Shown one piece after another: positions 9,923 through 24,354 of a stretch of 64,000 nucleotides of DNA. The stretch comes from Fibrobacteraceae bacterium (GTDB lineage Bacteria; Fibrobacterota; Fibrobacteria; Fibrobacterales; Fibrobacteraceae), in contig JAGBSH010000021.1 in NCBI GenBank assembly GCA_017631885.1, positions 1 to 64,000 of the forward strand, in the 5' to 3' direction. The notes under the pieces were generated by a model. It did not search any database, was not told the origin of the DNA, and was given only the letters and a program-made list of their open reading frames with translations. Position numbers and translations under genes: made by a program. Position 1 is the first letter of the stretch; each line of letters starts with the position of its first letter.

Positions 9923-10894
9923 ATGAATATAGTTTATGCAAGCGATGACAATTTTGCCGAAATAATGGGCGTATCCATACTTTCTTTGTTTGAAAACAAC
10001 AAGAATGAATTTAATATTAAAGTATATATACTTGATTCTGGTATAAAAGATGAAAATAGAGAAAAGTTAATTTCTTTAACAAAAAAATATGGTAACCAGT
10101 TATTTTTTATAAACACTCAAAATATTTCAAAAGAATTAAATAGTATTAAACAAGATCGTGGGGGAGCAAGTCAATTTGCTAGATTATTCCTTTCAAAATT
10201 ACTCCCAGATTCATGTGATAAAGTGCTTTATATTGATTGTGATACAATCATTAGGCATTCATTAAAAGATTTCTATGAAACTGATTTTGGTGAAAATATT
10301 TGCTGCGGTGTAATGGATTGCATTAGTAAGCAACATAGAGCAAAATTAGGATTAAAAGAGAATGAGACATATATAAATTCTGGAGTGATGTTAATAAATC
10401 TATGTACATGGCGAAATTATAATATTGAAGGAAAAATAAAATCGATTGTAAATAAGTTTGATGGACATGTTCCCTATGCAGATCAGGGAATCGTTAATTT
10501 GGCATTGCAAGGTCGTATAAAATGCGTTCATCCGAAGTATAATTGCATCTCGGTTTATACTGCATTTAGTTTTAATGACTTGTTAGAATATCGCCAACCA
10601 AGTGCTTGTCTTTCAAGTATTGAAATAGAAGAGGCTAAAATAGACCCTGTAATAGCGCATTTTGTTACATTATTTTGTATGTCTAGACCGTGGATAAAAA
10701 ATTCTCAAGGACCTTTTTTTGATGAATGGCGAGTTTATAAGCAAAAATCGCCATGGAAAGATTCTCCAGAACGAATGGAACGAAAAAGTTTAGTGCAAAA
10801 AATAAGTGGCATTTTATATAAGTATATTCCTAGGTGGATGAGTTTGACTATTCTTGGATTTTTACATGCAAGAGTGAAACCTAGAATAATGTAA
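9923..10894 (+). CDS. Glycosyltransferase family 8 protein
   Basis: GT8 enzymes (LgtC/RfaJ type) are retaining GT-A transferases that add galactose or glucose to surface glycans. The N-terminus MNIVYASDDNFAEIMGVSILSL is the classic GT8 start, the metal-binding DxD is in VLYIDCDTII (near residue 107), and YINSGVMLINL and YADQGIVNLAL are the other family blocks. It is 323 residues, normal. It opens a plus-strand cluster of cell-surface polysaccharide genes. The base composition is very A+T-rich. No clear Shine-Dalgarno is seen. Substrate and acceptor unknown. Confidence 0.9.
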   Translation: MNIVYASDDNFAEIMGVSILSLFENNKNEFNIKVYILDSGIKDENREKLISLTKKYGNQLFFINTQNISKELNSIKQDRGGASQFARLFLSKLLPDSCDKVLYIDCDTIIRHSLKDFYETDFGENICCGVMDCISKQHRAKLGLKENETYINSGVMLINLCTWRNYNIEGKIKSIVNKFDGHVPYADQGIVNLALQGRIKCVHPKYNCISVYTAFSFNDLLEYRQPSACLSSIEIEEAKIDPVIAHFVTLFCMSRPWIKNSQGPFFDEWRVYKQKSPWKDSPERMERKSLVQKISGILYKYIPRWMSLTILGFLHARVKPRIM

Positions 10895-10917
10895 TGTATT
10901 AAATGGATTGTTATATT

Positions 10918-12060
10918 ATGGCATTAAACTTGGATTATATTCCTAATAATATAAATACAGTTGTTATTGTAAATGACTTTGACTATGTTGAAGGTGGGGC
11001 TACTAAGGTTGCTTTAATGACAGCTGAAACTCTCGCAAAAATTGGGTATAATACTTTTTTATTTTCTGCAGTTTCAAACAAAAATATTTCTAAAATTCCT
11101 AACATTAACTATGTTTCTTCAGCACAGTATCCATCACTTTCAGATACAAATAAAATTCGTGGAGCGTTGAATGGAATTTATAATTTTAAAGCAAAAAATC
11201 ACTTTAAAAAACTTTTAAAAGAATTAGACCCCAAAACAACTTTAATACATATTCATTCTTGGACAAAAGCATTATCAAGTAGTATTTGGGATATAGCATA
11301 TTCAATGAATTTTCCGATTTATTTAACATGTCATGATTATTTTTCTGTGTGTCCTAATGGTGGTTTTTATAATTACCCACAAAATAAAATTTGTCATCTT
11401 AAACCACTGTCATTAAAGTGCGCGTGTTGTAATTGTGATTCTAGAAATTATGGAATAAAGTTGTATAGACTTGTCCGGACATTTGTTCAGAATAAAGTGG
11501 TTAATATATTTAAGAAAACGACAAAGTTTATATCAATTTCTGATTTTAGCGAAAATGTTTTAAAAGAACATTATCCTAAAGAAATTTCTTTTACAAGAGT
11601 TTATAATCCTATTGATAAAATAGAAATGACTGAAAAAATTAACCCAGAAAATGGAGAGTATTTTCTTTTTGCTGGTAGGCTTTCTAAAGAAAAAGGTTGT
11701 GACCTTTTTTGTCAAGCAATAAGTGATTTGGGGTTAAAAGGTATTGTTGTTGGTGAAGGTGAACAAAAAGATATTTTACAAAAACAATTTAAAAATGCTA
11801 ATATTGAATTTGTTGGATGGAAAAATCGAACTGAAGTTTTTGAATATATGAAAAAGGCTAGAGCGTTAGTGTTTCCTTCTCGATGGTATGAAACTGCAGG
11901 ATTATCAGTTTTAGAATCTCTATCAATCGGATTACCTTGTATTGTGTCAGATTGTTGTGCAGCAAGAGATTATATTAAAGATGAAAAAGACGGATGTTTG
12001 TTTTCGTCTTTGGAAGATTTAAAAAGGTGTTTGAGTAAGTATGAAAGGAATAGGATTTAA
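10918..12060 (+). CDS. Glycosyltransferase family 4 (GT-B) protein
   Basis: Retaining GT-B glycosyltransferase for the surface polysaccharide. The N-domain has VNDFDYVEGGATKVALMTAETLAKIGY (the glycine-rich acceptor loop); the C-domain has the phosphate-binding FAGRLSKEKGCDLF and the nucleotide-binding RWYETAGLSVLESLSIGLPCIVSD, the E-x7-E block of GT4. A cysteine cluster (CNCDSR region with CHLKPLSLKCACC) recurs in this GT4 subgroup. An ATG at 10903 is also in frame; 10918 is chosen because ATGGA at 10903-10907 can serve as a weak ribosome site. It follows the GT8 gene closely. Confidence 0.85.
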   Translation: MALNLDYIPNNINTVVIVNDFDYVEGGATKVALMTAETLAKIGYNTFLFSAVSNKNISKIPNINYVSSAQYPSLSDTNKIRGALNGIYNFKAKNHFKKLLKELDPKTTLIHIHSWTKALSSSIWDIAYSMNFPIYLTCHDYFSVCPNGGFYNYPQNKICHLKPLSLKCACCNCDSRNYGIKLYRLVRTFVQNKVVNIFKKTTKFISISDFSENVLKEHYPKEISFTRVYNPIDKIEMTEKINPENGEYFLFAGRLSKEKGCDLFCQAISDLGLKGIVVGEGEQKDILQKQFKNANIEFVGWKNRTEVFEYMKKARALVFPSRWYETAGLSVLESLSIGLPCIVSDCCAARDYIKDEKDGCLFSSLEDLKRCLSKYERNRI

Positions 12061-12071
12061 GTGAGTATACT

Positions 12072-13319
12072 ATGGATGCACAAAGTAGAAAAACCTATAT
12101 ATTTTTTGCTACAGATGTTGTGACTATTAGCGGAGCTCCTTTATATTATTTAAATAAAAAAAAATATTTGGAGTCAAAGGGATGGACGGTTTTGATTTTT
12201 TCCTTTGTTAAAGGGGTTCCTGGTTTGACAGGATTGAATTTATATCACAAACTTGTTATTCCAGAGTTGAAATTTTTTCCATATTTTTATACAAAAAAAA
12301 AGCAAAAAAAAATTATAAACATCATTTTGGGGAAAATACCTTTTTCTCAAGAAATAATAATAGAAACAAGTCATCCATTGTCAGCTCCTTGGGCGGAAAT
12401 TATTGCAGAAAAACTTCAATGTAAACATTTTATTTATTCGTTAGCAGAACGTGTGAATTCTTATGGAATAGATTTTTATAAGTATCTTCTTTTTAAGTTT
12501 CAACGTAGAGAATTAGTTGGTATTCATACTCACTCAATTCCTAGCATAATGGGAAAATCACTAGATGATGAAAATTATAAAGTTCCCTCATTGAGTGTTT
12601 TACCCACTCATACGATAACAAATGTTGCGAAAATAGATTTTAATAAATCTAAAATTTTACCTAACAGGGTTAATATTATAAGTATAGGTAGGCCCAATAA
12701 ACCATATTTTTTACCAACAATGAAATCATTCAAAAATTATGCAAAAGACAATCCGCAAATATTATTTAATTTAATAATTGTAGGTGATGATTCCGCAATA
12801 TTAAAAAATCTTAAGTCTATGTGTATGGAGTGTTCTAATGTAAATATGGTAACGATGGGAGAATTGTTCCCTATACCAGAAGATTTATTAGCGTGTGTTG
12901 ATGTGTGTATAGCTTCTTCTGGTTCTGCAACATTGGCAAAAAAATTTGGGCTTGCGACCATTAGTATAGATGCAAAAGATTTAAAACCAATAGGCATTCT
13001 CGGATATAACGCAACAAATTCTTTATTTCGCTCTGAAAAAGAACCCCCTATAGAACTTTCAATACTACTTGATTGTATTTTAAAGAAAAAAGAAGTACAA
13101 TCAAATTTTGTTTTGCCTGAATCATATGGAAAAATCGAGAATTATTATAGTCACTTTCATTTTTTAGAAAAATCTGAACCAGAAAAAAAATACTATCGAT
13201 TTTCTCAAGTTAAGAGTCGAAATAAATTAATTGTATTAGGGGGGATTTTTATTGGTTTGAATAATTGCAATCGAATTGCTAAAGTGATAAAAAGATTTAA
13301 AAAGGTAATACTAAAATGA
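12072..13319 (+). CDS. Probable GT-B fold glycosyltransferase
   Basis: 415 residues without a confident family name. The layout is that of a GT-B enzyme: an N-terminal Rossmann-like part with FFATDVVTISGAPLYYL, a middle loop containing IETSHPLSAPWAEIIAEKL, and a C-terminal part with IISIGRPNKPYFLPTMKSF, LIIVGDD and a SSGSATLAKKFG nucleotide-site-like block. The C-terminus is basic (KVIKRFKKVILK), suggesting membrane association. It lies 11 bases after the GT4 gene, and its stop overlaps the next ATG (ATGA). The context strongly supports a role in the same polysaccharide; donor and acceptor are unknown. Confidence 0.65.
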   Translation: MDAQSRKTYIFFATDVVTISGAPLYYLNKKKYLESKGWTVLIFSFVKGVPGLTGLNLYHKLVIPELKFFPYFYTKKKQKKIINIILGKIPFSQEIIIETSHPLSAPWAEIIAEKLQCKHFIYSLAERVNSYGIDFYKYLLFKFQRRELVGIHTHSIPSIMGKSLDDENYKVPSLSVLPTHTITNVAKIDFNKSKILPNRVNIISIGRPNKPYFLPTMKSFKNYAKDNPQILFNLIIVGDDSAILKNLKSMCMECSNVNMVTMGELFPIPEDLLACVDVCIASSGSATLAKKFGLATISIDAKDLKPIGILGYNATNSLFRSEKEPPIELSILLDCILKKKEVQSNFVLPESYGKIENYYSHFHFLEKSEPEKKYYRFSQVKSRNKLIVLGGIFIGLNNCNRIAKVIKRFKKVILK

Positions 13320-14416
13320 CTCCTTATCTTTTTGTTTTTTTTATTTCATCTTTATGTTGTTTTTTTGCATATCTTTTTAAAAAGAAAAAAAGTGTATTTA
13401 TTTTCTTTTCCTTAATTTCAATAATATTACCAAGTTTATTATCGGGTTTTCGTGATACTTCTGTTGGAATAGATGTTGATTTGTACGGAGTTAGGGTTTT
13501 TGAACAATCGGCTTATTTGCGTTCTTTTGCTGATGTATTTAATTATTCTAAAGATTATGGTGTAGAATTATTTTATGTAATCATAAATGTAATAGTTCAA
13601 TTATTTTCGAATAATATATTTTGGCTTTTTTTTATTCAACAAGTTTTTGCTTTGTCAATAGTAAGCATTACATGTTATAGAATGAAAGAAAAAATAAATG
13701 CCCCTTTGCTTTTTACAATTTATTTGTTGTATTATTTTTGTTTGTCAATGTGTCATTTACGGCAAATGTTTGCTGTGGCGATTGCCTTACTAGCATTTTC
13801 TTTCTTGATAGAAAAAAAATGGAAGGTTTATATAATACTTTTATTAGTTGGATTCTTTTTTCATAAATCAATATTATTTTTGTTGATTTTATTACCATTA
13901 AATTTAATTACTGAGCGGGAACAATCTGTAAAAAAAAGATATTTCTTTTTAATCTTTATTATGGGAAGTGTAATGTATTTCTTTTTTCCTATGATTCTAG
14001 CTGCTATGGTGGCGTCTGGGGTAATGGATACTAAGTATATGTTGTATGCTTCTCAAGAAGGTAATCAAGTTCATAAAATAGATTTTCTTATTACGTTATG
14101 CTTATTTCTATTTTCCTTTATAAGAGAACGTTATTATTTTAAAAATAATATTAAGGTTTTGTGTATTCTAATTATTTTCGTTTTATTATGTGGTGTTTAT
14201 AATGATGTTGCTACACGCATAGCATATTATTTGAATTTTTATTTATTTCTTTTCATCTTAATGTTGTCTTATAATGGAAAATTCAAATTAAATAAGAAAG
14301 AATGTATTTTTCTTTGTATGATCTTAATACAATTTTTGTACTTAGGGATAACTTCAGGTTTTTCTAGAGTTATTCCGTATACATCAAAAGTATTAGGTTT
14401 GATTGATTATTGGTAG
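13316..14416 (+). CDS. EpsG-family / Wzy-like polysaccharide polymerase
   Basis: Integral inner-membrane protein of 366 residues with about ten hydrophobic segments. The segment SGFRDTSVGIDVDLYGVRVFEQ fits the EpsG-family signature (R..[ST]VG.D...Y), and CHLRQMFAVAIALLAF is a second conserved block. EpsG/Wzy proteins join lipid-linked repeat units on the periplasmic side. Its presence with a flippase at 22006 suggests a Wzx/Wzy-dependent pathway. The ATG overlaps the previous stop (ATGA). It is extremely A+T-rich: the 60 bases from 13381 contain only 10 G or C. Confidence 0.85.
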   Translation: MTPYLFVFFISSLCCFFAYLFKKKKSVFIFFSLISIILPSLLSGFRDTSVGIDVDLYGVRVFEQSAYLRSFADVFNYSKDYGVELFYVIINVIVQLFSNNIFWLFFIQQVFALSIVSITCYRMKEKINAPLLFTIYLLYYFCLSMCHLRQMFAVAIALLAFSFLIEKKWKVYIILLLVGFFFHKSILFLLILLPLNLITEREQSVKKRYFFLIFIMGSVMYFFFPMILAAMVASGVMDTKYMLYASQEGNQVHKIDFLITLCLFLFSFIRERYYFKNNIKVLCILIIFVLLCGVYNDVATRIAYYLNFYLFLFILMLSYNGKFKLNKKECIFLCMILIQFLYLGITSGFSRVIPYTSKVLGLIDYW

Positions 14417-14449: not shown

Positions 14450-15559
14450 ATGAAAAAAGACATAATCACCGTTACCTCTCCGTTGCTTCCGTCATTGGAA
14501 GAATTTGAACCATTACTCAAGGATATTTGGGAGCGTAAGTGGCTCACTAATAATGGTCATTATCACAAAGAACTTGAAAAAGCTTTGGCTGAATATCTTG
14601 GCGTAGAATATATAAGCCTTTTTACGAACGGAACACTTCCGCTTATTACAGCTCTTCAAGCGATGCGTATTACCGGCGAAGTGATTACCACTCCTTATAG
14701 TTTTGTTGCCACAACACATTCTATCTGGTGGAATGGACTAAAACCAGTGTTTGTGGATGTGGACCCCACAACAGGCAATCTTGACCCACAGAAAATTGAA
14801 GAGGCTATTACACCAAAGACAACAGCCATTATGCCTGTACATGTGTATGGTAATCCATGTGATATTGATGCTATTCAAGAAATTGCGGATCGTTACGGAC
14901 TTGCTGTTATTTACGATGCGGCTCATGCTTTTAATGTAAAAATTGATGGTAAAACCATTCTTGATGCTGGTGATATGAGCACCCTTAGTTTTCACGCTAC
15001 AAAAACATACAATACGGTTGAAGGAGGAGCACTCATTTGTCGTGATGCTAGAACAAAAAAACGCATTGATTATCTCAAGAATTTTGGTTTTGCAGGCGAA
15101 ACAACAGTGGTCGCTCCAGGAATCAATAGTAAAATGGATGAAATACGTGCAGCATACGGATTGTGTAATCTTAAACATATCGATAGCGCCATAGCAGCTA
15201 GAAAGAAGGTCGCTCAAAAGTATCGTGCCGCATTAACCAATGTTACTGGTATTTCTATGTTTAACGAACGTGATGATGTGACATATAATTACTCATACTT
15301 TCCAATTTTTGTAAATGAAAAAGAATATGGAATTAGCCGCGATGCTCTTTATGAAAAAATGAAAGAACAAAATGTTCTTGGCCGTCGTTATTTTTATCCA
15401 CTAATTTCAGATTTTGCGATATATCGAGGATTACCTTCTGCATCTAAAGAAAATCTTCCTGTAGCTACACGAATGGCTAATGAAGTGATTTGTTTGCCCA
15501 TGCATGCTAGTCTTACAGAAGATGATATTGAAAGGATATTAACATTGATTGTGAAATAA
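14450..15559 (+). CDS. DegT/DnrJ/EryC1/StrS sugar aminotransferase (VioA-like)
   Basis: PLP-dependent enzyme that aminates a nucleotide-linked 4-keto-6-deoxy sugar. PLP-binding Lys185 is in SFHATKTYNTVEGG, and Asp156 in YDAAHAFN binds the ring nitrogen. Strings such as WLTNNGHYHKELE, SLFTNGTLPLITALQ and ITTPYSFVATTHSIWWNGL closely recall VioA, which makes dTDP-4-amino-4,6-dideoxyglucose (Qui4N) in O-antigens; this sub-assignment is from memory. It is 369 residues, normal. The gene is less A+T-rich than its upstream neighbours, suggesting a different origin. It begins the sugar-modifying half of the cluster. Confidence 0.88.
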   Translation: MKKDIITVTSPLLPSLEEFEPLLKDIWERKWLTNNGHYHKELEKALAEYLGVEYISLFTNGTLPLITALQAMRITGEVITTPYSFVATTHSIWWNGLKPVFVDVDPTTGNLDPQKIEEAITPKTTAIMPVHVYGNPCDIDAIQEIADRYGLAVIYDAAHAFNVKIDGKTILDAGDMSTLSFHATKTYNTVEGGALICRDARTKKRIDYLKNFGFAGETTVVAPGINSKMDEIRAAYGLCNLKHIDSAIAARKKVAQKYRAALTNVTGISMFNERDDVTYNYSYFPIFVNEKEYGISRDALYEKMKEQNVLGRRYFYPLISDFAIYRGLPSASKENLPVATRMANEVICLPMHASLTEDDIERILTLIVK

Positions 15560-15574
15560 AATTATATTTCATTT

Positions 15575-17020
15575 ATGACCAAGAATGAACTACTAGAAAA
15601 ACTTAAAGACATTGAATGGGATGACTTTGAGGTGAAAGAAGCAGCCGCAGAACTTCCTAAAAATATTTGGGAAACAGTAAGTGCTTTTTCTAACACATCT
15701 GGTGGGTGGATTGTTCTTGGAGTTAAACAGGTTGGAAAAAAATTTGAAATTTCTGGTGTTAAGAATGGAGAAAAAATAGAATCGGATTTTTTTAATGTTC
15801 TTAATGCTAAACAAAAGTTGAATCATCAAATTTCTGTTTCTGCTAAAAAGTATAAAATACAAGAAAAATTAGTTATTGCTTTTTTTGTGCCATCTTCTTT
15901 AATTAAACCAATATACGTTAATTCTTTACAGAATACTTTTTTACGTTCTGGTAGTGGTGATAGGCGGGCTTCCGAAATTGAAATCAATGCGATGTTTCGT
16001 GATCAAGCCTTTGGAACAAAAAGTGAACAAGTAATAGATGGCTCTTCTATTAAAATGTTAAATCAACATTCTTTACGAGCTTATCGAAATAGAATAGCTA
16101 ACGTTAATCCAAGTTTTCCATACAATGAACTTTCGACAAAGGATTTTTGTGAAAAAACAGGTATAACACGAAAAGGTTTATTAACCTATGGTGGTCTGTT
16201 GATGCTAGGAAAACGAGATGAAGTTCAATTACATATTAGTAATTTTTGGATTGATATGCTTGAAATTCCTGGAATTTCTCTTGGAGAGGCAGAACCGCGT
16301 TATACGTTTCGTATGCCTGAACAAGAAAATATTTGGGAATATTATAATGTTTTGATTCAGCGTTTACGGCTTCATGTTGATGCTCCGTTTACTGCTGGTC
16401 CAAATGGTTTTGCTCCAGATGATAATTCAGAACTTTATGCATTGCGTGAAGGTCTTGTGAATATGCTTGCTCATGCAGATTATTTTAGCCCAATGCATTC
16501 AACAGTAAGGGTATTTACCAATCGTATAGAATTTCAAAATGCGGGGCGTTTTATGTTTGATTTGAGTGATATAAAGAAACAAATGCATTCAATGCCAAGA
16601 AACCCTGAGCTTATTAAACTTTTTCGATTTGCCAAGTTGAGCGAAAATGCTGGTTATGGTATTGATAAAATGCTGACATGGGAAAAATTAACGCAAAATT
16701 CTGTTGAATTTACAAGTGATTTAGTTTGTTCAACGGTAACGTATTTCCGAGGAACTTCTGCAAGCAAACAAAAAAATGTCCCAGAAAATGTCCCAGAAAA
16801 TGTCCCAGAAAATGTCCCAGAAAATGTCCCAGAAAAACCGAAACGAGAAATTCTTGAATTATTAAAAGATAATCCCTATATGACCATGAGTGATTTGGCA
16901 AAGAGATATGTTGTGGATATAAAAACAATCAAGCGTGATATAGAAAGTCTAAAGCAAAGGGGCTTGCTTATCCGTATTGGCCCAGATAAGGGTGGTTATT
17001 GGAGAGTTGTTGAAAAATGA
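15575..17020 (+). CDS. AlbA/Schlafen-type ATP-binding putative regulator with winged-helix C-terminus
   Basis: 481 residues. The N-terminal Schlafen/AlbA_2 domain shows EVKEAAAELPKNIWETVSAFSNTSGG and IVLGVKQ. The middle has the RecG-like HATPase_c_4 region with ALREGLVNMLAHADYF and RIEFQNAGRF, then AGYGIDKML. A linker of five NVPE units (about residues 401-420) joins a C-terminal winged-helix region (MTMSDLAKRYVVDIKTIKRDIESLKQRGLL). Such proteins are annotated as transcriptional regulators or divergent AAA-4 proteins; the real function is poorly known. Here it interrupts a polysaccharide operon and overlaps the next gene by ATGA, so it is co-expressed with it. Confidence 0.85.
   Translation: MTKNELLEKLKDIEWDDFEVKEAAAELPKNIWETVSAFSNTSGGWIVLGVKQVGKKFEISGVKNGEKIESDFFNVLNAKQKLNHQISVSAKKYKIQEKLVIAFFVPSSLIKPIYVNSLQNTFLRSGSGDRRASEIEINAMFRDQAFGTKSEQVIDGSSIKMLNQHSLRAYRNRIANVNPSFPYNELSTKDFCEKTGITRKGLLTYGGLLMLGKRDEVQLHISNFWIDMLEIPGISLGEAEPRYTFRMPEQENIWEYYNVLIQRLRLHVDAPFTAGPNGFAPDDNSELYALREGLVNMLAHADYFSPMHSTVRVFTNRIEFQNAGRFMFDLSDIKKQMHSMPRNPELIKLFRFAKLSENAGYGIDKMLTWEKLTQNSVEFTSDLVCSTVTYFRGTSASKQKNVPENVPENVPENVPENVPEKPKREILELLKDNPYMTMSDLAKRYVVDIKTIKRDIESLKQRGLLIRIGPDKGGYWRVVEK
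16775..16834 (+). repeat. 12-base tandem repeat, five exact units, encoding (NVPE)5
   Basis: AATGTCCCAGAA is repeated five times without a mismatch from 16775 to 16834. The unit is a multiple of three, so gain or loss of units would change the length of the linker before the winged helix but not the frame. Confidence 0.95.
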
Positions 17021-18219
17021 AAAAGTTGATGCTCCTTGGCGGATTGCGCTACTTGTTGCCTGTAATAGAGGAGGCTCACAAGTTGGGCATCTATGTAATT
17101 ACAGCTGATTACTTACCAGATAATATTGCTCACAAATATTCCGACGAATACTGTAATGTGAGTATAATCGACAAAGAAGCTGTTCTTAAAGCAGCACAAG
17201 AACTAAAAATTGATGGAATTCTTTCGCATGCAGTAGATCCAGGCGTTGTTTCTGCTGCTTATGTAGCAGAAAAAATGGGACTGCCGTTTCAGTGCAGTTA
17301 TGAGGCTGCTTGTATTTTGCAAGATAAGTCTCTTTTTCGCAAGTTTCTTACCGAACACGGGTTCAACTGTCCGAAGGCGAAGGGATACGACAACGCTGAG
17401 GATGCTCTAAAAGACATTGACTATTTCAATTGGCCTGTTATTGTGAAGCCGGTGGATTCCGCAGGCAGCAAGGGAGTGACGAAAGTCGAAGAGAAAGCCG
17501 ATTTACAAAAGGCTATTGAAACTGCCCTTTCCGCCTCGCTCTCTAAACATTTCGTAATTGAAGACTTCTTGGACAAGGTGGGGGCGCAGTCTAGTGCAGA
17601 CATTTTTACTATAGATGGTAAACTTGTGTATCCAGCTTATTCTGACCAGTTGTTTGACAAGAATGCAGCCAACCCATACACGCCTGCTATTGAAATTTGG
17701 CCGGCCTCAATGGAGCAAAATTTTCAGGATGACTTGACTGCGCAGTTGCAGCGACTGTTCTCGTTGCTCGGCGTGAAATCAGGCATCTACAACGTGGAAA
17801 GTCGGGTATGCTCTGATGGCAGGGCTTATATTATGGAGGTAAGTCCCCGAGGTGGTGGAAACCGCATCGCAGAACTGCAGGACATGGCGACAAGCCAGAG
17901 CCTAATCGTAAACGAAATCAAGAAAGCCCTCGGCATGTCGCTTGACAAGATCACAGCACCCAAATACGATGGAATCTGGTGCAACTATATTTTGCACACA
18001 AATAAATCAGGCGTATTTGAGGCAATAGATATCAATCCCGAATTTCAAAAAAAACATATTCGTGACATTGGATTAATCGTAAAGCCCGGTGATAAAGTAG
18101 CTCCCTTTACAGGGGCAAATGCTTCTATCGGCACACTCTTCCTTCGTTTTGAAACACGTCAAGAATTAGAAAATGCTTTGAACAATTCAGCATCTTGGAT
18201 GCAAATCAGAGTGAAATAG
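17017..18219 (+). CDS. ATP-grasp ligase (carbamoyl-phosphate-synthase-like)
   Basis: 400-residue ATP-grasp enzyme, a family that joins a carboxylate to an amine through an acyl phosphate. The preATP-grasp part begins MKKLMLLGGLRYLLPVIEEAHKLG. The ATP-binding part has WPVIVKPVDSAGSKGVTKV, HFVIEDFLDKV, and the metal-binding YIMEVSPRGGGNRI. This subgroup often sits in surface-glycan loci, and a plausible job is amidation of a sugar amino group with an amino acid or similar acid (inference). It overlaps the regulator by ATGA. Its base composition is clearly richer in G+C (28 of 60 bases from 17461), pointing to a separate origin. Confidence 0.82.
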   Translation: MKKLMLLGGLRYLLPVIEEAHKLGIYVITADYLPDNIAHKYSDEYCNVSIIDKEAVLKAAQELKIDGILSHAVDPGVVSAAYVAEKMGLPFQCSYEAACILQDKSLFRKFLTEHGFNCPKAKGYDNAEDALKDIDYFNWPVIVKPVDSAGSKGVTKVEEKADLQKAIETALSASLSKHFVIEDFLDKVGAQSSADIFTIDGKLVYPAYSDQLFDKNAANPYTPAIEIWPASMEQNFQDDLTAQLQRLFSLLGVKSGIYNVESRVCSDGRAYIMEVSPRGGGNRIAELQDMATSQSLIVNEIKKALGMSLDKITAPKYDGIWCNYILHTNKSGVFEAIDINPEFQKKHIRDIGLIVKPGDKVAPFTGANASIGTLFLRFETRQELENALNNSASWMQIRVK

Positions 18220-18227
18220 GGTAAAAT

Positions 18228-19193
18228 ATGAAACCAATTGGCGGATACTTTGAATGGGAATTTTCACTTGTAAAAAAAACAATACTGCATGAAAATGCGG
18301 TTTACTTGAATAGTGGTCGCCATGCCTTAGAATATATTTTGCAGGGCTTACAAAATATAAAGTGTCTTTGGATCCCATATTTCACTTGTGATGTCGTATT
18401 GCAGCCATTACAAAAACTCAATATTCCCTATAAATTTTATAGGATTAGTGCGGATTTAGAATTGAGTGAAAATATTGAATTGGGAGATGGAGAATATCTG
18501 CTCTACACCAATTATTATGGAATTAAGGATGATTATTGCAATCAAATCGCTGAAAAATATGGCGATAGAGCCATTATTGATAATGCCCAAGCTCTTTTCT
18601 GTAAGCCGATTGTAGGGAAGAATCAATTCTATAGTCCACGCAAGTTTATGGGAATGCCCGATGGCGGTATAGCAGTGACGAATTTTCCAAATACCGAAAA
18701 CCTATTGCCCGTTGACCAGTCTTTTGACCGTTGTTCTCATCTGTTGAAACGACACGAATTGATTCCCGCTGAAGGATACAATGAGTTTAAAGAAAACAGC
18801 AGGAAAATTACGGCCGCTCCGCTATCTCAAATGAGCACAATTTCTCAAAAAATTTTCAAATCCGTTGATTTGGAATTTATCAAAAAACGTCGTCGTGAAA
18901 ATTTTGAGACTTTGCATAAGAGCCTTGGAGATTCGAATAGGTTAAATATTTCTTCTTTGGATTCTTTTGAGTGTCCTTTGGTCTATCCGTACTGGTCTGA
19001 CGATGCGGAACTGAAAAAGAAACTTATCGAAAAAAGTATATTTGTTGCTACATACTGGCCGAATGTCTTTGAGTGGTGCAAGCCAGATGATTTAGAATAT
19101 AATCTAGCATCGAATGTGGTTTGCATCCCCATAGATCAAAGATATGAAATTGAAGATATGGATAGAATTGTAAAGGAGATTGAAAGATGTTAA
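18228..19193 (+). CDS. Divergent PLP-dependent aminotransferase-like protein of a glycan cluster
   Basis: 321 residues, shorter than typical DegT enzymes (~370). The fold is still recognisable: YLNSGRHALEYIL as the PLP phosphate-binding start, IIDNAQALF (Asp118) in place of the ED/DAAHALG block, and FYSPRKFMGMPDGGIAVT, where Lys139 sits in the Schiff-base lysine position. The match to DegT is weak, so it may be an aminotransferase acting on an unusual sugar or a related lyase or dehydratase. An AGGG sits before the ATG. Its end overlaps the next gene by 7 bases, so the two are translated together. Confidence 0.65.
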   Translation: MKPIGGYFEWEFSLVKKTILHENAVYLNSGRHALEYILQGLQNIKCLWIPYFTCDVVLQPLQKLNIPYKFYRISADLELSENIELGDGEYLLYTNYYGIKDDYCNQIAEKYGDRAIIDNAQALFCKPIVGKNQFYSPRKFMGMPDGGIAVTNFPNTENLLPVDQSFDRCSHLLKRHELIPAEGYNEFKENSRKITAAPLSQMSTISQKIFKSVDLEFIKKRRRENFETLHKSLGDSNRLNISSLDSFECPLVYPYWSDDAELKKKLIEKSIFVATYWPNVFEWCKPDDLEYNLASNVVCIPIDQRYEIEDMDRIVKEIERC

Positions 19194-19804
19194 AGGGAAA
19201 ATTTGTTTATTTACGAATGATTGAACTTGCTGATGTAGAATTGACATATGGGTGGCATAACGATTGTGAACTACAGAAGATGACGTGTGGTCCAATCCGT
19301 GTCGTATCTAAAGAAATTGAGAAGAACTGGGTGCTGTCCAAAACAACTAATAATGGGAAGGATATCTATTTGTCTATTTGTTTAAATGAAAATGATAAGA
19401 TGATAGGACTGATATCAATTAACGATATAGACTTTCTCAACAGAAAATGCAATTGTGGAGGCATTCTTATAGGTGATAAGGATTATCGTGATGGTGTTGC
19501 GTATCGTGAATCGTTAAAAATGATGCGGGCTTATGTTTTTGAGCAATTGAATATGAATAAGCTTACGGGAAAGTGCTTAGAATCACATGTTTTATCTCGT
19601 GCTGATATGGAGTCTGCAGGTTATAAATTAGAAGGAACATTGAGGGATGAAGTGTATAAGAACGGAATCTTTCATAATGTTCTCTGTTATTCCTTGTTAA
19701 AAAGTGAGTATAGTGAGTTTAAGTCTTTGTATGATGATGAAGATAAATACTTGCTCGTTTTTGCAAGGATGGTAAGAAAAATTAAAAAAGAGTTAAAACA
19801 ATAG
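19187..19804 (+). CDS. GNAT-family N-acyltransferase
   Basis: 205 residues of the RimJ/RimL-like GNAT type: MLKGKFVYLRMIELADVELTYGWHND at the N-terminus, MIGLISINDIDFLNRKCNCGGILIGD as the central strands, then ESLKMMRAYVFEQLNMNKLTGKCLE and AGYKLEGTLRDEVYKNG for the acyl-donor side. GNATs of this kind in polysaccharide loci acylate amino sugars such as 4-amino-4,6-dideoxyhexoses. A strong AAGGAGAT ribosome site lies within the end of the preceding gene. Immediately followed by an acyl carrier protein gene, it may take its acyl group from that carrier rather than from CoA (inference). Confidence 0.85.
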   Translation: MLKGKFVYLRMIELADVELTYGWHNDCELQKMTCGPIRVVSKEIEKNWVLSKTTNNGKDIYLSICLNENDKMIGLISINDIDFLNRKCNCGGILIGDKDYRDGVAYRESLKMMRAYVFEQLNMNKLTGKCLESHVLSRADMESAGYKLEGTLRDEVYKNGIFHNVLCYSLLKSEYSEFKSLYDDEDKYLLVFARMVRKIKKELKQ

Positions 19805-19820
19805 CAAAAAGGAAAAACTT

Positions 19821-20045
19821 ATGGATATCAAAGAATTCATTTTAAAATTCGCAGAAGAAATTGAAATTGAGAATCAGGAGGATTTAACTCCTGATACCGT
19901 ATTTCGTGATTTGGAAGAATGGTCTTCTTTGTCAGTCATGGTGTTTATCGCCTTTGCCGATGAAAATTTTGGAAAGCAAATCGGGGACAAGCAAATCGCT
20001 GAATGCAATACAATTCAAGATCTTTATAATCTAATGAAGGCATAA
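19821..20045 (+). CDS. Acyl carrier protein
   Basis: 74-residue acidic helical protein with the ACP pattern: DLTPDTVFRDLEEWSSLSVMVFIAFADENFG, where the second Ser of the WSSLS block stands in the DSL position for the phosphopantetheine arm. The usual Asp before the serine is absent, which is tolerated in many specialised ACPs. An AAGGA ribosome site precedes the ATG. The gene is followed after 2 bases by a KAS III gene. It is a dedicated carrier for the acyl group made by the next two genes rather than the housekeeping AcpP (inference from context). Confidence 0.85.
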   Translation: MDIKEFILKFAEEIEIENQEDLTPDTVFRDLEEWSSLSVMVFIAFADENFGKQIGDKQIAECNTIQDLYNLMKA

Positions 20046-20047
20046 AA

Positions 20048-21202
20048 ATGGCAATCATGAAGTTTAATGGAATCGGCATCACTGCAATGGCTGGTGCTGT
20101 GCCGAGTCATGTTGTTGAAAATTTGAAATATACAGATCATTTTTCGCCAGAAATGGTTAAGGAAGTGGTAGAAAAGGTCGGTATTTACGAACGTCGTTTT
20201 GCAGACGAGAAAACATGCTCTAGCGACCTGTGCTTTGCCGCGGCTCAAAAGTTAATTCTTGATAATAATATCAATCGAGATGAAATAGACTTGCTAGTGT
20301 TTATTTCTCAAACAGCGGATTACCGCATGCCAGCAACATCTATTACATTGCAACATCGTTTAGGGTTGAAGAACTCTTGTATTGCATTTGATGTAAATCT
20401 AGGATGTTCCGCATTTCTTTACGGGATGTCAGTTGTTTATAGTATGGTGTCATCCGGAAATATTAGGAAAGCATTGATTCTCGATGGAGAAACTAGAAGC
20501 AAGGTGTATGGGCCGAGAGATAGACGTTCTGCCTTTATCTTTGGCGATGCTGGCGTTGCAGCACTTGTCGAACGTAATCCCAAGTTCGGTGATTCATACA
20601 TATCTTTGAATTCTGATGGCTCCCGAGCTGACCTGATTATGATTAAAGCAGGCGGTTATCGTCACATGTCCACTCCTGAAACCCTTAAGGAACGTGTTAT
20701 TGATGAATATGGCAATATGCGTAGTGATGAACAGGGGTATATGAAGGGTGGGGATGTTTTCAATTTTGTCATTCGTGAGATTCCGCGAGATATCAAGAAT
20801 ACCCTTGCGACAGCGAATGTAACTGCAGATCAAATGGATTATATTGTATTCCATCAAGCAAATAATTTCATCAATTCCTACATAGCCAAGAAAATGAAAT
20901 TGAATGTGGAAAAAATCCCGCACACAATTGAAAAATTTGGAAACACATCCAGTGTTAGTGTTCCTCTTACCATTGTGAGCGAATTGAACGGAAAACTTGA
21001 TGGACAAAAGACATTGCTGATGAGTGCATTCGGAGTGGGTATGACTTGGGCGTCAGGAATTATTCCTTTTGTTGATTGTAAAATTAGTGATATTGTTGAA
21101 GTTGAAAATGGACTCCCTTGTGATGAGTTTCTTCGTCGTGATTATACACCGATTGAGGGGGGGGCTGAAGAATCCACAACGAACCCCAAAAAAGAAGATT
21201 AG
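20048..21202 (+). CDS. Beta-ketoacyl-ACP synthase III-like enzyme
   Basis: 384-residue thiolase-fold condensing enzyme of the FabH family, somewhat longer than housekeeping FabH (~320). The catalytic triad is complete: Cys120 in NLGCSAFLYG, His269 in VFHQANNFI and Asn299 in KFGNTSSVSVPL. GDAGVAALVE and MSAFGVGMTWASGII are further family blocks. FabH-type enzymes condense an acyl-CoA with malonyl-ACP to give a 3-oxoacyl-ACP. A ~40-residue hydrophilic C-terminal tail (EESTTNPKKED end) is unusual. Lying between an ACP and an SDR gene, it very probably starts a short acyl chain for sugar decoration. Confidence 0.9.
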   Translation: MAIMKFNGIGITAMAGAVPSHVVENLKYTDHFSPEMVKEVVEKVGIYERRFADEKTCSSDLCFAAAQKLILDNNINRDEIDLLVFISQTADYRMPATSITLQHRLGLKNSCIAFDVNLGCSAFLYGMSVVYSMVSSGNIRKALILDGETRSKVYGPRDRRSAFIFGDAGVAALVERNPKFGDSYISLNSDGSRADLIMIKAGGYRHMSTPETLKERVIDEYGNMRSDEQGYMKGGDVFNFVIREIPRDIKNTLATANVTADQMDYIVFHQANNFINSYIAKKMKLNVEKIPHTIEKFGNTSSVSVPLTIVSELNGKLDGQKTLLMSAFGVGMTWASGIIPFVDCKISDIVEVENGLPCDEFLRRDYTPIEGGAEESTTNPKKED

Positions 21203-21213
21203 TTGAGGTTTAT

Positions 21214-21975
21214 ATGTTCAATCCCTTTTCATTAGAAAATAAGACTATTTTAATAACTGGTGCATCTAGTGGTATTGGTCGTCAATGTGCTATTGATTGT
21301 TCCAAAATGGGAGCGAAAGTTGTTCTTATTGCTCGCAATGAAGAAAGGTTAAATGAAACGCGTTCTATGATGGAAGGGAATGGACATGTGCTAGTTTGTC
21401 AGGATTTGACCTGTTTTGAGAAGATTCCCGATATTGTAAAAAATATTGTCAAACAGATAGGTGCTTTGGACGGTGTTTTGCATTGCGCCGGTATTAGCAA
21501 TACGGAACCGCTGAAACTTTATGGCGTAGATCGTCTGGAGGAGTTCTTTGGGGCGAATGTCTTTGGTGCTGTAATGCTGACTAGGGAAATTTGCAAACTG
21601 AAAAACATCAACAAAAATGGTGCAAGTATTGTCTTTTTTGCATCTGTAGCTGGCATTGTAGGAGAAAGTTGCAAATCTGCGTATTCAATGACTAAGGGTG
21701 CTTTAATAAGCGGAACACGAGCATTAGCAGTGGAATACTCCAAAAAGAATATACGTGTAAACAGTGTTTCTCCAGGTGTAATTGAAACACCGATTAATGC
21801 AAAGCAGAAATATATGGTGGAGCCTGAATTGAGGGCTCAATTTGAAGCCAAACATCTTCTAGGACTTGGAAAAACGACAGACATTTCTAATGCGTGTATC
21901 TATTTACTTTCGGATGCAAGCCGTTGGGTAACTGGGCAAAATTTAATTGTTGATGGTGGTTATACGGTAAGATAG
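21214..21975 (+). CDS. Short-chain dehydrogenase/reductase, FabG-like
   Basis: 253-residue classical SDR: cofactor motif TGASSGIG (15-22), catalytic Ser144, Tyr157 and Lys161 (FFASVAG, AYSMTK), and the C-terminal VTGQNLIVDGGYT typical of 3-oxoacyl-ACP reductases. In this setting it would reduce the 3-oxoacyl-ACP made by the upstream KAS III to a 3-hydroxyacyl-ACP. A GAGG ribosome site lies 7 bases before the ATG. It could instead reduce a keto sugar, but the neighbouring ACP and KAS genes favour the acyl role. Confidence 0.9.
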   Translation: MFNPFSLENKTILITGASSGIGRQCAIDCSKMGAKVVLIARNEERLNETRSMMEGNGHVLVCQDLTCFEKIPDIVKNIVKQIGALDGVLHCAGISNTEPLKLYGVDRLEEFFGANVFGAVMLTREICKLKNINKNGASIVFFASVAGIVGESCKSAYSMTKGALISGTRALAVEYSKKNIRVNSVSPGVIETPINAKQKYMVEPELRAQFEAKHLLGLGKTTDISNACIYLLSDASRWVTGQNLIVDGGYTVR

Positions 21976-22005
21976 TTTAAAAAGAAAAAGTTAGTGGAAT
22001 TTTTT

Positions 22006-23457
22006 ATGTCCCTAAAATCGTCTGTTATAACCTCACTTATTTGGAAATTCCTTGAGCGTATAGGCACTCAAGGAGTCCAATTTGTTGTTGCGATTGTTTT
22101 AGCGCGTTTGCTATCTCCATCGGATTTCGGTTTGATTGCTTTGGTAACCGTTTTTGTGACGATTGCAAATGTTTTTGTTCAAAGTGGATTAAATACTGCT
22201 TTAATACAGAAGAAAAATGCGGACAATTTAGATTTTTCAACGGTCTTTTTTACAAGTTTGGCTTTATCGCTTATTTTGTATGCTGGATTGTTTTTATCGG
22301 CACCATTAATTGCAAAATTTTATAACAACCAGTTAGAACTAATACCTGTCATTCGTGTGCTAGGCTTAATGCTTCCGCTAGGTGCGTTGAATTCAATTCA
22401 GGAAGCCTATGTGGCTCGCAACATGATGTTCAAAAAACTTTTTTATCGGAGTATAGGAGCTATTATTCCGGCTGGTTTAATTGGCGTGGCTGTTGCATAT
22501 TTAGGTTATGGAATTTGGGCACTTGTTGCTCAACAACTCGCAAATAGTTTGTTAGTTTGTATTATTATGTGGTTTACTGTTAAATGGAGACCAAATTTTT
22601 CGTTTTCATTTGAGCGGTGGAAAGGTCTTTTTTCTTTTGGTTGGAAACTTCTTTGTTCGGCCTTATTAGATACATTTTATCGAAATATGAGAAATCTTGT
22701 TATTGGCAAAATGTTTACCTCTGCAGATTTAGGGTATTATAATCGTGGAGATCAATTTCCCCATTTAATCATCAACAATTTAAATGACTCGATTCAATCG
22801 GTAATGTTACCATCTCTTTCTTCTGTACAAGACGACAAAATTCGTTTAAAGAATTTGGCTCGTCGTTCAATTGTTACAAGTTCGTTTTTAATTTTGCCTT
22901 TAATGGCTGGTTTGGCGGCTGTTGCTGAGCCACTAACTCTTGTGATTCTTGGCGAAAAGTGGCTCCCAGCAGTGCCTTTTATTCAAATTTGTTGTTTTAG
23001 TTATGCATTCTGGCCAATTCATACAACCAACCTTTCGGCTATTAATGCTGTTGGGCGTAGTGATGTATTTTTAAAACTTGAGTTTATAAAAAAAGGGTAT
23101 GGTTTTGTAGTGCTTCTTCTTGCAATCTGGTTATTTCGTTCGCCAATCGGCATTGCAATGAGTGTGGTCATTACAGCTCCTATTGGGGCGTTTGTAAATG
23201 CTTTTCCTAATAAAAAACTTTTAAATTATGGATATTTAGAACAAATGAAAGATATTTTGCCTTCGTTTGTTTTATCTCTTGTGATGGGGTGTGGGGTTTA
23301 TGCCTTATCTCAAGTTTGGATTGGCTCACCTTTAATACAATTGATTTTTTTTACTATTATAGGTTCAGTTTTTTATCTTGGAATAGCCAAATTATTTCAC
23401 TTTGAATGCTTGGATTATTTGATTAATACGATAAAAGAGTTTCGGAAAAGAAAATAG
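22006..23457 (+). CDS. Wzx-like polysaccharide flippase (MOP superfamily)
   Basis: 483-residue membrane protein with about 14 hydrophobic segments. The start SLKSSVITSLIWKFLERIGTQGVQFVVAIVLARLLSPSDFGLIALV is typical of the WzxC/polysaccharide_synt group. Such proteins flip lipid-linked sugar units from cytoplasm to periplasm, to be joined by the polymerase at 13316. A GTG at 21994 is in frame, but ATG 22006 is chosen because GTGGA then lies at good ribosome-site distance. It is the last gene of the polysaccharide cluster and meets a minus-strand gene tail to tail after 6 bases. Confidence 0.92.
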   Translation: MSLKSSVITSLIWKFLERIGTQGVQFVVAIVLARLLSPSDFGLIALVTVFVTIANVFVQSGLNTALIQKKNADNLDFSTVFFTSLALSLILYAGLFLSAPLIAKFYNNQLELIPVIRVLGLMLPLGALNSIQEAYVARNMMFKKLFYRSIGAIIPAGLIGVAVAYLGYGIWALVAQQLANSLLVCIIMWFTVKWRPNFSFSFERWKGLFSFGWKLLCSALLDTFYRNMRNLVIGKMFTSADLGYYNRGDQFPHLIINNLNDSIQSVMLPSLSSVQDDKIRLKNLARRSIVTSSFLILPLMAGLAAVAEPLTLVILGEKWLPAVPFIQICCFSYAFWPIHTTNLSAINAVGRSDVFLKLEFIKKGYGFVVLLLAIWLFRSPIGIAMSVVITAPIGAFVNAFPNKKLLNYGYLEQMKDILPSFVLSLVMGCGVYALSQVWIGSPLIQLIFFTIIGSVFYLGIAKLFHFECLDYLINTIKEFRKRK

Positions 23458-23463
23458 TTTAAT

Positions 23464-24354
23464 TTACTGATCCTTCAGTCTTTTAAGTGGACCTTCAAAT
23501 TGTTCTATTAATTTATTTATTGGTTCGGTTCCTTTAAAAAAAACTTTTGAGTCAAACCCATCATCAGCAGTTAAATGGCATTTTTTTAAAGCTTCTTTTA
23601 CAGCTTTAGCACCTACTTGCGCTTTCCACGATTTAAAACCAATTTTAAAACGTCTTTCAACTTCTTTTTCTCGGAAGCCCCAAAGTTTTTTTTCTTTTTC
23701 CTTGTATACAACATCAATAAACCCACCAGATGGGTTATCTAGCTTACAATTAAACTGCCTTAATTTAGCGTCAAATTCACGATAAGTTAAGGCATAGTAA
23801 TTTTTATCTATACTTCTAGTTTTTTTCTCAATGAAGTTTTTTAAAAAATAAATTTCTGTATCATTAGGATACTTGCGTTGTATTTTTTTGTATTCCTTGT
23901 ATTGATTAAGTTCATTTGCAGCAGTTCTTATAGCTAGTTCTCGAAAATCATTAATCGAAGAATTTACAACACGCCCATTTTTATATAAAATGTATATAAG
24001 CATAAGTAATGCTATTCTTTTATTTCCATCATGAAATGCATGATTTTTTACTAGACCAAAGAATAAAGTTGCTGCAATTGTTTCCAATTTAGTCCATTTA
24101 TAGGATTCCCCAAAAGAAACTATTTGACGACCAATAGCGGATTCAAGAAGAGAAATATTTTTTATTCCTATAAACATTCCTTCTTCTTTATCATTTTCAA
24201 GAAAATAATCTGCCAATAAGTAATATCCACGAAGGACTTCGTTATTTGTTACAAGGTTAACATTCTTTATTTTGTGAGGCCAATCTTGATACTTCATTAA
24301 AGACTTGTATTCATATTCGTATTTTTTTTTGAGCTCTTTACAAATATATTCCAT
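23464..24354 (-). CDS. Doc/Fic-domain protein without a visible antitoxin
   Basis: 296 residues. The Fic motif HAFHDGNKR (105-113) has the Doc-type form with Lys in place of Gly, and the upstream block NISLLESAIGRQ resembles the active-site flap of Doc. Doc toxins phosphorylate EF-Tu; other Fic proteins AMPylate targets. A C-terminal half of ~140 basic residues is not part of the usual 126-residue Doc and is not recognised. No Phd-like antitoxin gene lies on either side (upstream is a non-coding gap with a transposase remnant; downstream is the flippase). It may be a remnant, a regulated single-gene enzyme, or use the C-terminal half for control. Confidence 0.8.
   Translation of the reverse strand: MEYICKELKKKYEYEYKSLMKYQDWPHKIKNVNLVTNNEVLRGYYLLADYFLENDKEEGMFIGIKNISLLESAIGRQIVSFGESYKWTKLETIAATLFFGLVKNHAFHDGNKRIALLMLIYILYKNGRVVNSSINDFRELAIRTAANELNQYKEYKKIQRKYPNDTEIYFLKNFIEKKTRSIDKNYYALTYREFDAKLRQFNCKLDNPSGGFIDVVYKEKEKKLWGFREKEVERRFKIGFKSWKAQVGAKAVKEALKKCHLTADDGFDSKVFFKGTEPINKLIEQFEGPLKRLKDQ

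What the first reader, a model, noticed from the sequence alone, without database searches (positions are those of the whole stretch)
17017..21975. Custom acyl-chain module inside a surface-polysaccharide cluster
Seen: ATP-grasp ligase, divergent PLP enzyme, GNAT, ACP, KAS III (complete Cys-His-Asn triad) and SDR lie in close succession with short gaps or overlaps, downstream of a VioA-like aminotransferase. Known: VioA makes dTDP-Qui4N, and anthrose-like sugars carry a 3-hydroxyacyl group on that nitrogen. Inference: KAS III plus SDR make 3-hydroxyacyl on the dedicated ACP, and the GNAT moves it to a 4-amino sugar; the ATP-grasp may add a further amide-linked acid. This would be an ACP-fed sugar acylation route, which I do not recall as described.
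Basis: partly seen in the sequence, partly recalled or inferred. Interest (0 to 1): 0.65.

Follow-up and report, generated by a model that had tools for sequence, protein, structure and literature searches.

The report
Dedicated acyl-chain supply for a sugar
A Fibrobacter-like bacterium carries, inside a surface-sugar gene cluster, a small private fatty-acid-type module that most likely builds a short 3-hydroxyacyl group and hangs it on an amino sugar; the principle was already described in other bacteria, but the combination with an amide-bond ligase and a second PLP enzyme is a new variant.

Summary
They sit in a Wzx/EpsG surface-polysaccharide cluster downstream of a DesI/VioA-like aminotransferase, although a Schlafen/AlbA_2 gene (15575-17020) lies between. 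The core interpretation (KAS III + SDR make a 3-hydroxyacyl chain on a dedicated ACP for N-acylation of a 4-amino sugar) is well supported by conserved synteny: an acyltransferase-ACP-KAS III-SDR cassette recurs in dozens of Bacteroidales loci and other Fibrobacterota. The novelty claim fails: the Pseudomonas syringae viosamine island (2011) and the Flavobacterium psychrophilum O-antigen (2019) describe the same ACP-fed sugar acylation. The less expected result concerns the ATP-grasp. In Fibrobacterota this aminotransferase is followed by an ATP-grasp in 53 of 59 loci, usually without KAS III; the single locus with a VioB/PglD-type acyltransferase lacks the ATP-grasp. I therefore propose that the ATP-grasp acylates the sugar nitrogen (probably with an amino acid) and the GNAT caps it with the ACP-borne 3-hydroxyacyl group, as in the known residue Qui4N-[N-(3-hydroxybutyryl)-alanyl]. 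This order is inferred. KAS III was probably acquired from Bacteroidales. New variant of a known kind.

The parts
14450..15559 (+). DegT/DnrJ-family sugar aminotransferase, DesI/VioA-like; predicted dTDP-4-amino-4,6-dideoxyhexose (Qui4N) synthase
   Evidence: Pfam DegT 341 bits; NCBIfam DesI best at 302 bits but below the 650 cut-off; PDB 2po3 237 bits, next best 174; a 71% identical homologue sits directly after rfbA-rfbB in L211
15575..17020 (+). Schlafen/AlbA_2 + HATPase_c_4 + HTH protein between aminotransferase and ATP-grasp; probably regulatory or an insertion, not a biosynthetic part
   Evidence: Pfam; a homologue follows the aminotransferase in L154, L174 and L203 as well
17017..18219 (+). 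ATP-grasp carboxylate-amine ligase; predicted to amidate the sugar 4-amino group with an (amino) acid
   Evidence: Pfam ATP-grasp_4; LAL_C2 26.8 bits, just under its 29.4 cut-off; PDB L-amino acid ligase BL00235 E 3e-18; an ATP-grasp follows the DesI-like aminotransferase in 53/59 Fibrobacterota loci
18228..19193 (+). divergent fold-type-I PLP enzyme (DegT-like), partner of the ATP-grasp
   Evidence: no Pfam/PDB sequence hit; AlphaFold model pLDDT 87.5 and top 50 PDB matches all DegT-type aminotransferases; Lys139/Asp118 invariant
19187..19804 (+). GNAT N-acyltransferase, predicted to use the ACP-borne acyl group
   Evidence: Acetyltransf_3 45 bits, PseH model 33.5 bits below cut-off; GNAT fold of SpeG/RimL type by Foldseek; directly precedes the ACP here and in L065 and L128
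19821..20045 (+). dedicated acyl carrier protein, acceptor Ser36 (WSSL)
   Evidence: PP-binding 28.9 bits; Ser36 invariant in 8 homologues; genome has one ACPS-family phosphopantetheinyl transferase match
20048..21202 (+). 3-oxoacyl-ACP synthase III with Cys120-His269-Asn299
   Evidence: only PF08541 protein in the genome; nested among Bacteroidales cluster enzymes
21214..21975 (+). SDR, predicted 3-oxoacyl-ACP reductase (TGASSGIG and SAYSMTK motifs)
   Evidence: adh_short_C2 186 bits; translation; an SDR lies beside KAS III in 73 of 80 named loci
21994..23457 (+). Wzx-type flippase of the same cluster
   Evidence: Polysacc_synt_3 346 bits
9923..14416 (+). remainder of the polysaccharide cluster: GT8 (9923-10894), GT4 (10903-12060), an unassigned protein (12072-13319), EpsG-type polymerase (13316-14416)
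   Evidence: Pfam

Best explanation
A surface-polysaccharide sugar-decoration operon. The aminotransferase makes dTDP-4-amino-4,6-dideoxyhexose (most likely Qui4N) from the RmlA/RmlB product (inferred from homology and synteny). KAS III condenses acetyl-CoA (or another short primer) with malonyl on the dedicated ACP, and the SDR reduces the 3-keto group, giving 3-hydroxyacyl-ACP (3-hydroxybutyryl if acetyl-primed; inferred). The ATP-grasp ligates a carboxylic acid, probably an amino acid supplied or shaped by the second PLP enzyme, to the sugar 4-amino group, and the GNAT caps the aminoacyl nitrogen with the 3-hydroxyacyl chain from the ACP. The product would be an N-(3-hydroxyacyl)aminoacyl-4-amino-4,6-dideoxyhexose, which glycosyltransferases, Wzx and the EpsG-type polymerase build into a polysaccharide. 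Shown: gene content, catalytic residues, conserved order, linkage across genomes. Inferred: every substrate and the order of the two amide-forming steps. I put the core ACP-fed N-acylation at about 0.8 and the aminoacyl spacer at about 0.5.
For: Catalytic residues intact. ACP within 1.2 kb of KAS III in 67/80 named loci and SDR in 73/80; most of the 13 loci scored without an ACP are tandem KAS-SDR-KAS arrays whose ACP lies further upstream. The full order ATP-grasp-PLP2-GNAT-ACP-KAS-SDR recurs in a Bacteroides MAG (L065: PLP2 53, GNAT 44, ACP 64, KAS 79, SDR 69% identical), and ATP-grasp-PLP2-GNAT-ACP-KAS in an Akkermansia MAG (L128). DegT-ATP-grasp linkage in 53/59 Fibrobacterota loci, against 0/8 loci with a distant DegT; 40 of the 59 were taken by the DegT search alone. 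Where this DegT has no ATP-grasp but has the ACP/KAS set (L033, L087, L090, L098, L103, L115) a VioB/PglD-like acyltransferase is present instead. Core DegT-ATP-grasp-PLP2-GNAT without ACP/KAS in L155. RmlB present in the genome (455 bits); rfbA-rfbB-DegT(71%) with NeuD-like, ACP, SDR and KAS III in one Parabacteroides record. Qui4N carrying N-[(R)-3-hydroxybutyryl]-L-alanyl is a known natural residue (Hafnia alvei 1205, cited in PMC3210612).
Against: In other Fibrobacter loci a GNAT follows a distant DegT and precedes ACP-KAS without any ATP-grasp (L034, L036, L037, L043, L046), so a GNAT of this general kind does not require an aminoacyl acceptor. The ATP-grasp substrate and the PLP2 reaction are unknown. 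The aminotransferase falls short of every NCBIfam equivalog cut-off. RmlA/RmlB were not found in the part of the window examined; RmlB is on another contig. No expression or chemical data.
Confidence: 0.55

Rival explanations
1. One reading: GNAT transfers the 3-hydroxyacyl group from ACP directly to the 4-amino sugar (as VioB/WfpG are proposed to do) and the ATP-grasp/PLP2 pair serves another substituent or another sugar in the repeat.
For: Direct acylation is the proposed pathway in P. syringae and F. psychrophilum; GNAT-ACP-KAS occurs after other DegT enzymes without an ATP-grasp.
Against: ATP-grasp is the near-universal partner of this aminotransferase in Fibrobacterota, usually as the next gene, and the LbH acyltransferase is absent where ATP-grasp is present, which suggests the ATP-grasp takes the sugar nitrogen.
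Confidence: 0.27
2. The ATP-grasp loads a carboxylic or amino acid onto the ACP (BtrJ-like, from memory), and KAS III/SDR elaborate that starter; GNAT moves the finished chain.
For: ATP-grasp and ACP lie in one operon-like run; ACP-acylating ATP-grasp enzymes are known from antibiotic pathways (own knowledge).
Against: Close ATP-grasp homologues (75-88% identical) stand beside the aminotransferase in many loci with no ACP or KAS at all.
Confidence: 0.07
3. The KAS III acts as an acyltransferase (CerJ/DpsC type) or the acyl group is O-linked, the GNAT being unrelated.
For: Some KAS III homologues are acyltransferases (own knowledge); the 384-aa protein has a C-terminal tail of about 30 aa that most homologues lack.
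Against: Complete Cys-His-Asn condensation triad, adjacent reductase in 73/80 loci, best PDB hits annotated as 3-oxoacyl-ACP synthases, and an N-acyltransferase at the adjoining position in many loci.
Confidence: 0.06
4. The set is housekeeping fatty acid synthesis that happens to lie here.
For: It is the only KAS III (PF08541) in this genome.
Against: Sister genomes up to 100% complete lack any KAS III; canonical FabH of other genera in the family scores about 102-133 bits, cluster types about 67-102; the gene is nested in Bacteroidales polysaccharide-locus enzymes; two FabB/F-type synthases lie elsewhere in the genome.
Confidence: 0.02

Closest known systems
Viosamine island of Pseudomonas syringae pv. 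tabaci (vioA, vioB, vioM, vioR, vioS, vioT, acp; PMC3927599)
   Same: VioA-type aminotransferase, KAS III, 3-oxoacyl-ACP reductase, small ACP and N-acyltransferase in one island; product dTDP-Qui4N carrying 3-hydroxybutyryl; deletion of vioR removes the modified sugar
   Different: No ATP-grasp or second PLP enzyme among its seven ORFs; has a methyltransferase; decorates flagellin, not a Wzx/EpsG polysaccharide. No sequence-level comparison could be made here
Flavobacterium psychrophilum O-PS R1-group genes wfpC-wfpG (PMC6519341)
   Same: O-PS-specific ACP, 3-ketoacyl-ACP synthases, reductase and acyltransferase proposed to feed an N-acyl group to a 4-amino sugar nucleotide, in Bacteroidota
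   Different: Two synthases giving 3,5-dihydroxyhexanoyl, PglD-type acyltransferase, UDP-QuiNAc4N acceptor; no ATP-grasp mentioned in the passages read
E. coli plasmid locus rmlB-rmlA-wzx-DegT-GNAT-PLP enzyme-ATP-grasp-GT (NZ_LR890610.1, L213)
   Same: 59% identical aminotransferase next to rmlBA, with GNAT, a PLP enzyme and an ATP-grasp
   Different: PLP enzyme shows no homology to PLP2 and looks like a fold-type-II amino-acid enzyme; ATP-grasp only 26% identical over 237 aa; GNAT not recognisably related; no ACP/KAS; analogous, not homologous in these parts

Membership tests
Viosamine-island-type ACP-fed sugar N-acylation | C4 sugar aminotransferase of VioA/DesI type | tested here: inconclusive
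   DesI is the best NCBIfam and PDB match but below the equivalog cut-off; an rfbA-rfbB-linked 71% homologue supports a dTDP-sugar
Viosamine-island-type ACP-fed sugar N-acylation | dedicated ACP with phosphopantetheine serine | tested here: met
   Ser36 invariant; the modification itself is not testable here
Viosamine-island-type ACP-fed sugar N-acylation | KAS III with complete catalytic triad plus 3-oxoacyl reductase-type SDR | tested here: met
Viosamine-island-type ACP-fed sugar N-acylation | LbH (VioB/PglD-like) N-acyltransferase | tested here: not met
   a GNAT stands in its place; the LbH type occurs in sister loci L033, L087, L090, L098, L103
Viosamine-island-type ACP-fed sugar N-acylation | 3-hydroxyacyl group on the sugar nitrogen of the glycan | not testable with these tools
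   needs glycan chemistry
Amino-acid-ligase-type ATP-grasp acting on amino sugars | ATP-grasp fold related to carboxylate-amine ligases | tested here: met
   (LAL_C2 itself is just under its cut-off)
Amino-acid-ligase-type ATP-grasp acting on amino sugars | sugar amine as acceptor | not testable with these tools
   supported only by linkage to the aminotransferase
Housekeeping FabH (fatty acid initiation) | conserved in close relatives | tested here: not met
   no KAS III at all in many near-complete Fibrobacter genomes

The most novel reading that the evidence does not exclude
A hybrid pathway in which an ATP-grasp ligase and its partner PLP enzyme first hang a custom amino acid on the 4-amino sugar nucleotide, and a GNAT then caps it with a 3-hydroxyacyl chain from a private type II fatty-acid module, giving N-(3-hydroxyacyl)aminoacyl-Qui4N. 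In Fibrobacterota the DesI-like aminotransferase/ATP-grasp pair is a general aminoacyl-sugar platform with swappable capping modules.
Probability: 0.4. Interest if true: 0.55.

Novelty: new variant of a known kind. Interest (0 to 1): 0.4.

Why it matters
It gives a testable genetic basis for a class of known glycan decorations, N-(hydroxyacyl)aminoacyl sugars. It suggests that rumen and gut bacteria exchange short-chain acyl-supply cassettes between phyla to vary surface sugars. It also points to a Fibrobacter-wide aminotransferase/ATP-grasp pairing that I found no description of in the open-access papers searched.

Tried and rejected
Housekeeping FabH: rejected by distribution. PLP2 by sequence: Pfam, NCBIfam, PDB phmmer and profile searches gave nothing useful; only structure prediction placed it. 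An early Fisher test of ATP-grasp versus LbH acyltransferase on KAS loci alone was not significant (p 0.15-0.17), partly because distance limits missed acyltransferases in L033 and L087; the larger aminotransferase-centred set replaced it, but 19 of its 59 loci were collected through ATP-grasp, PLP2 or KAS searches or are the window itself, so that figure is mildly biased. Literature searches for ATP-grasp genes in Qui4N or glycyl/alanyl sugar clusters found nothing relevant; the library is open access only, so absence there proves little. The PLP enzyme of the E. coli analogue is not homologous to PLP2. An Azospirillum plasmid KAS III locus had no neighbouring ACP and was not followed.
Full report
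Observation. They belong to a polysaccharide cluster running from a GT8 gene (9923) through a GT4, an EpsG-type polymerase and a DegT aminotransferase (14450-15559) to a Wzx flippase (21994-23457).

Are the parts intact? KAS III Cys120, His269 and Asn299 are invariant in seven homologues and its best PDB relatives are annotated 3-oxoacyl-ACP synthases. The ACP acceptor Ser36 is invariant, in a WSSL motif rather than DSL, and the genome has one ACPS-family phosphopantetheinyl transferase match. The SDR has TGASSGIG and SAYSMTK motifs in its translation. The PLP enzyme has no family match by sequence, but the AlphaFold model (pLDDT 87.5) matches DegT-type sugar aminotransferases throughout the top 50 PDB hits (TM-score by query length 0.53-0.65), with Asp118 and Lys139 invariant. 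The GNAT model has a SpeG/RimL-type GNAT fold, which does not settle its substrate.

Is it a real module? Yes. A scan of one genome for each of 84,980 species gave 80 best KAS III loci, nearly all Bacteroidales. ACP lies within 1.2 kb in 67, SDR in 73, and an LbH or GNAT acyltransferase within 2.5 kb in at least 43 (tandem KAS-SDR-KAS arrays make the ACP figure a lower bound). In Fibrobacterota an ACP-KAS set recurs in about 17 loci. The complete order ATP-grasp-PLP2-GNAT-ACP-KAS-SDR is found in a Bacteroides MAG (L065), and the same order without a detected SDR in an Akkermansia MAG (L128).

Origin. The window's KAS III, with 92% identical copies in another Fibrobacter (L032) and a horse-faeces MAG (L049), nests inside a Bacteroidales clade (support 0.99); identity to Prevotellaceae copies is 83%, but 66% or less to the other Fibrobacterota copies. 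Lateral transfer of the acyl cassette is the simplest reading. It is not housekeeping FabH: in the family, genera with canonical FabH score about 102-133 bits against PF08541, while Fibrobacter (g6) and this genus hold only cluster-type enzymes (about 67-102 bits) or none.

What the sugar is. The aminotransferase is nearest DesI, whose product is dTDP-4-amino-4,6-dideoxyglucose (Qui4N; own knowledge), though below the equivalog cut-off. The genome has RmlB. In a Parabacteroides record a 71% identical aminotransferase directly follows rfbA and a dTDP-glucose 4,6-dehydratase, and the same record carries a NeuD-like acyltransferase, ACPs, SDRs, an AMP-binding protein and KAS III. In an E. coli plasmid a 59% identical one follows rmlB-rmlA-wzx and is followed by GNAT, a PLP enzyme and an ATP-grasp.

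The role of the ATP-grasp. Searching with the aminotransferase itself and reading the surroundings shows that in Fibrobacterota 53 of 59 close homologues are followed within 5 kb by an ATP-grasp, 51 within one gene; 40 of the 59 come from the aminotransferase search alone. None of 8 loci with a distant DegT has one. The only locus of the 59 with a VioB/PglD-type acyltransferase (L033) lacks the ATP-grasp, and so do the Bacteroidales loci L087, L090, L098, L103 and L115. Behind the ATP-grasp the next genes vary: PLP2, a second ATP-grasp, an opine-dehydrogenase-like protein, a PaaK/CapK-like ligase, an SDR, a decarboxylase-like PLP protein, or GNAT with or without ACP-KAS-SDR (several of these names are my reading of the sequences, not tested). 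The pattern fits an aminoacyl-sugar platform with exchangeable caps. Matching natural residues are known: Qui4N bearing N-[(R)-3-hydroxybutyryl]-L-alanyl in Hafnia alvei 1205, and N-acetylglycyl-Qui4N in E. coli O121, both cited in PMC3210612.

Mechanism proposed. dTDP-Qui4N from the aminotransferase; ATP-grasp amidates N4 with an acid, probably an amino acid shaped by PLP2; KAS III and SDR make 3-hydroxyacyl-ACP; GNAT caps the aminoacyl nitrogen.

Comparison with the known. ACP-fed N-acylation of a 4-amino sugar is described: the P. syringae viosamine island, where the vioR deletion removes modified viosamine (PMC3927599), and F. psychrophilum wfpC-wfpG for 3,5-dihydroxyhexanoyl-QuiNAc4N (PMC6519341). 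In both, ACP as acyl donor is itself a proposal from genetics and structure. The window differs in the acyltransferase class and in the ATP-grasp and PLP2. Tandem KAS-SDR-KAS loci seen here (for example L034, L102, L103, L115, L126) resemble the two-synthase arrangement of F. psychrophilum; that link is an inference.

Verdict. Observation confirmed; interpretation partly supported; not a new principle but a new variant, with a Fibrobacter-wide aminotransferase/ATP-grasp association as the most useful new lead.

Noticed in passing
whole genome; Fibrobacteraceae genomes: Genus Fibrobacter (g6) and the window's genus appear to lack canonical FabH: many 99-100% complete genomes have no KAS III at all, while sister genera have one. 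The window's genome has two FabB/F-type synthases, so fatty acid initiation may be FabH-independent.
   Followed up: partly
window 15575-17020: Schlafen/AlbA_2-HATPase-HTH gene with a VPEN tandem repeat; homologues (65-79% identical) occur just after the same aminotransferase in L154, L174 and L203, which suggests a recurrent insertion or a cluster regulator.
   Followed up: partly
L033, L034, L040, L046, L102, L103, L115, L116, L123, L126: Tandem KAS III-SDR-KAS III arrays behind one ACP, a layout suited to two rounds of chain extension as proposed for 3,5-dihydroxyhexanoyl in F. psychrophilum.
   Followed up: partly
L049 (JAKSHX010000012.1): A MAG titled 'archaeon' carries a KAS III 92% identical to the window's and grouping with Fibrobacter; the title is probably wrong.
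   Followed up: no
window 23464-24354: Fic/DOC-family gene on the opposite strand immediately after the cluster.
   Followed up: no
window 8603-9670: PD-(D/E)XK nuclease-family transposase gene just upstream of the cluster, with MEKGMEKG-type repeats in its C-terminal part.
   Followed up: no
L148-L151 and similar loci: Opine-dehydrogenase-like and second ATP-grasp genes follow aminotransferase-ATP-grasp(-PLP2), hinting at alanopine-like or dipeptide-like sugar substituents.
   Followed up: no
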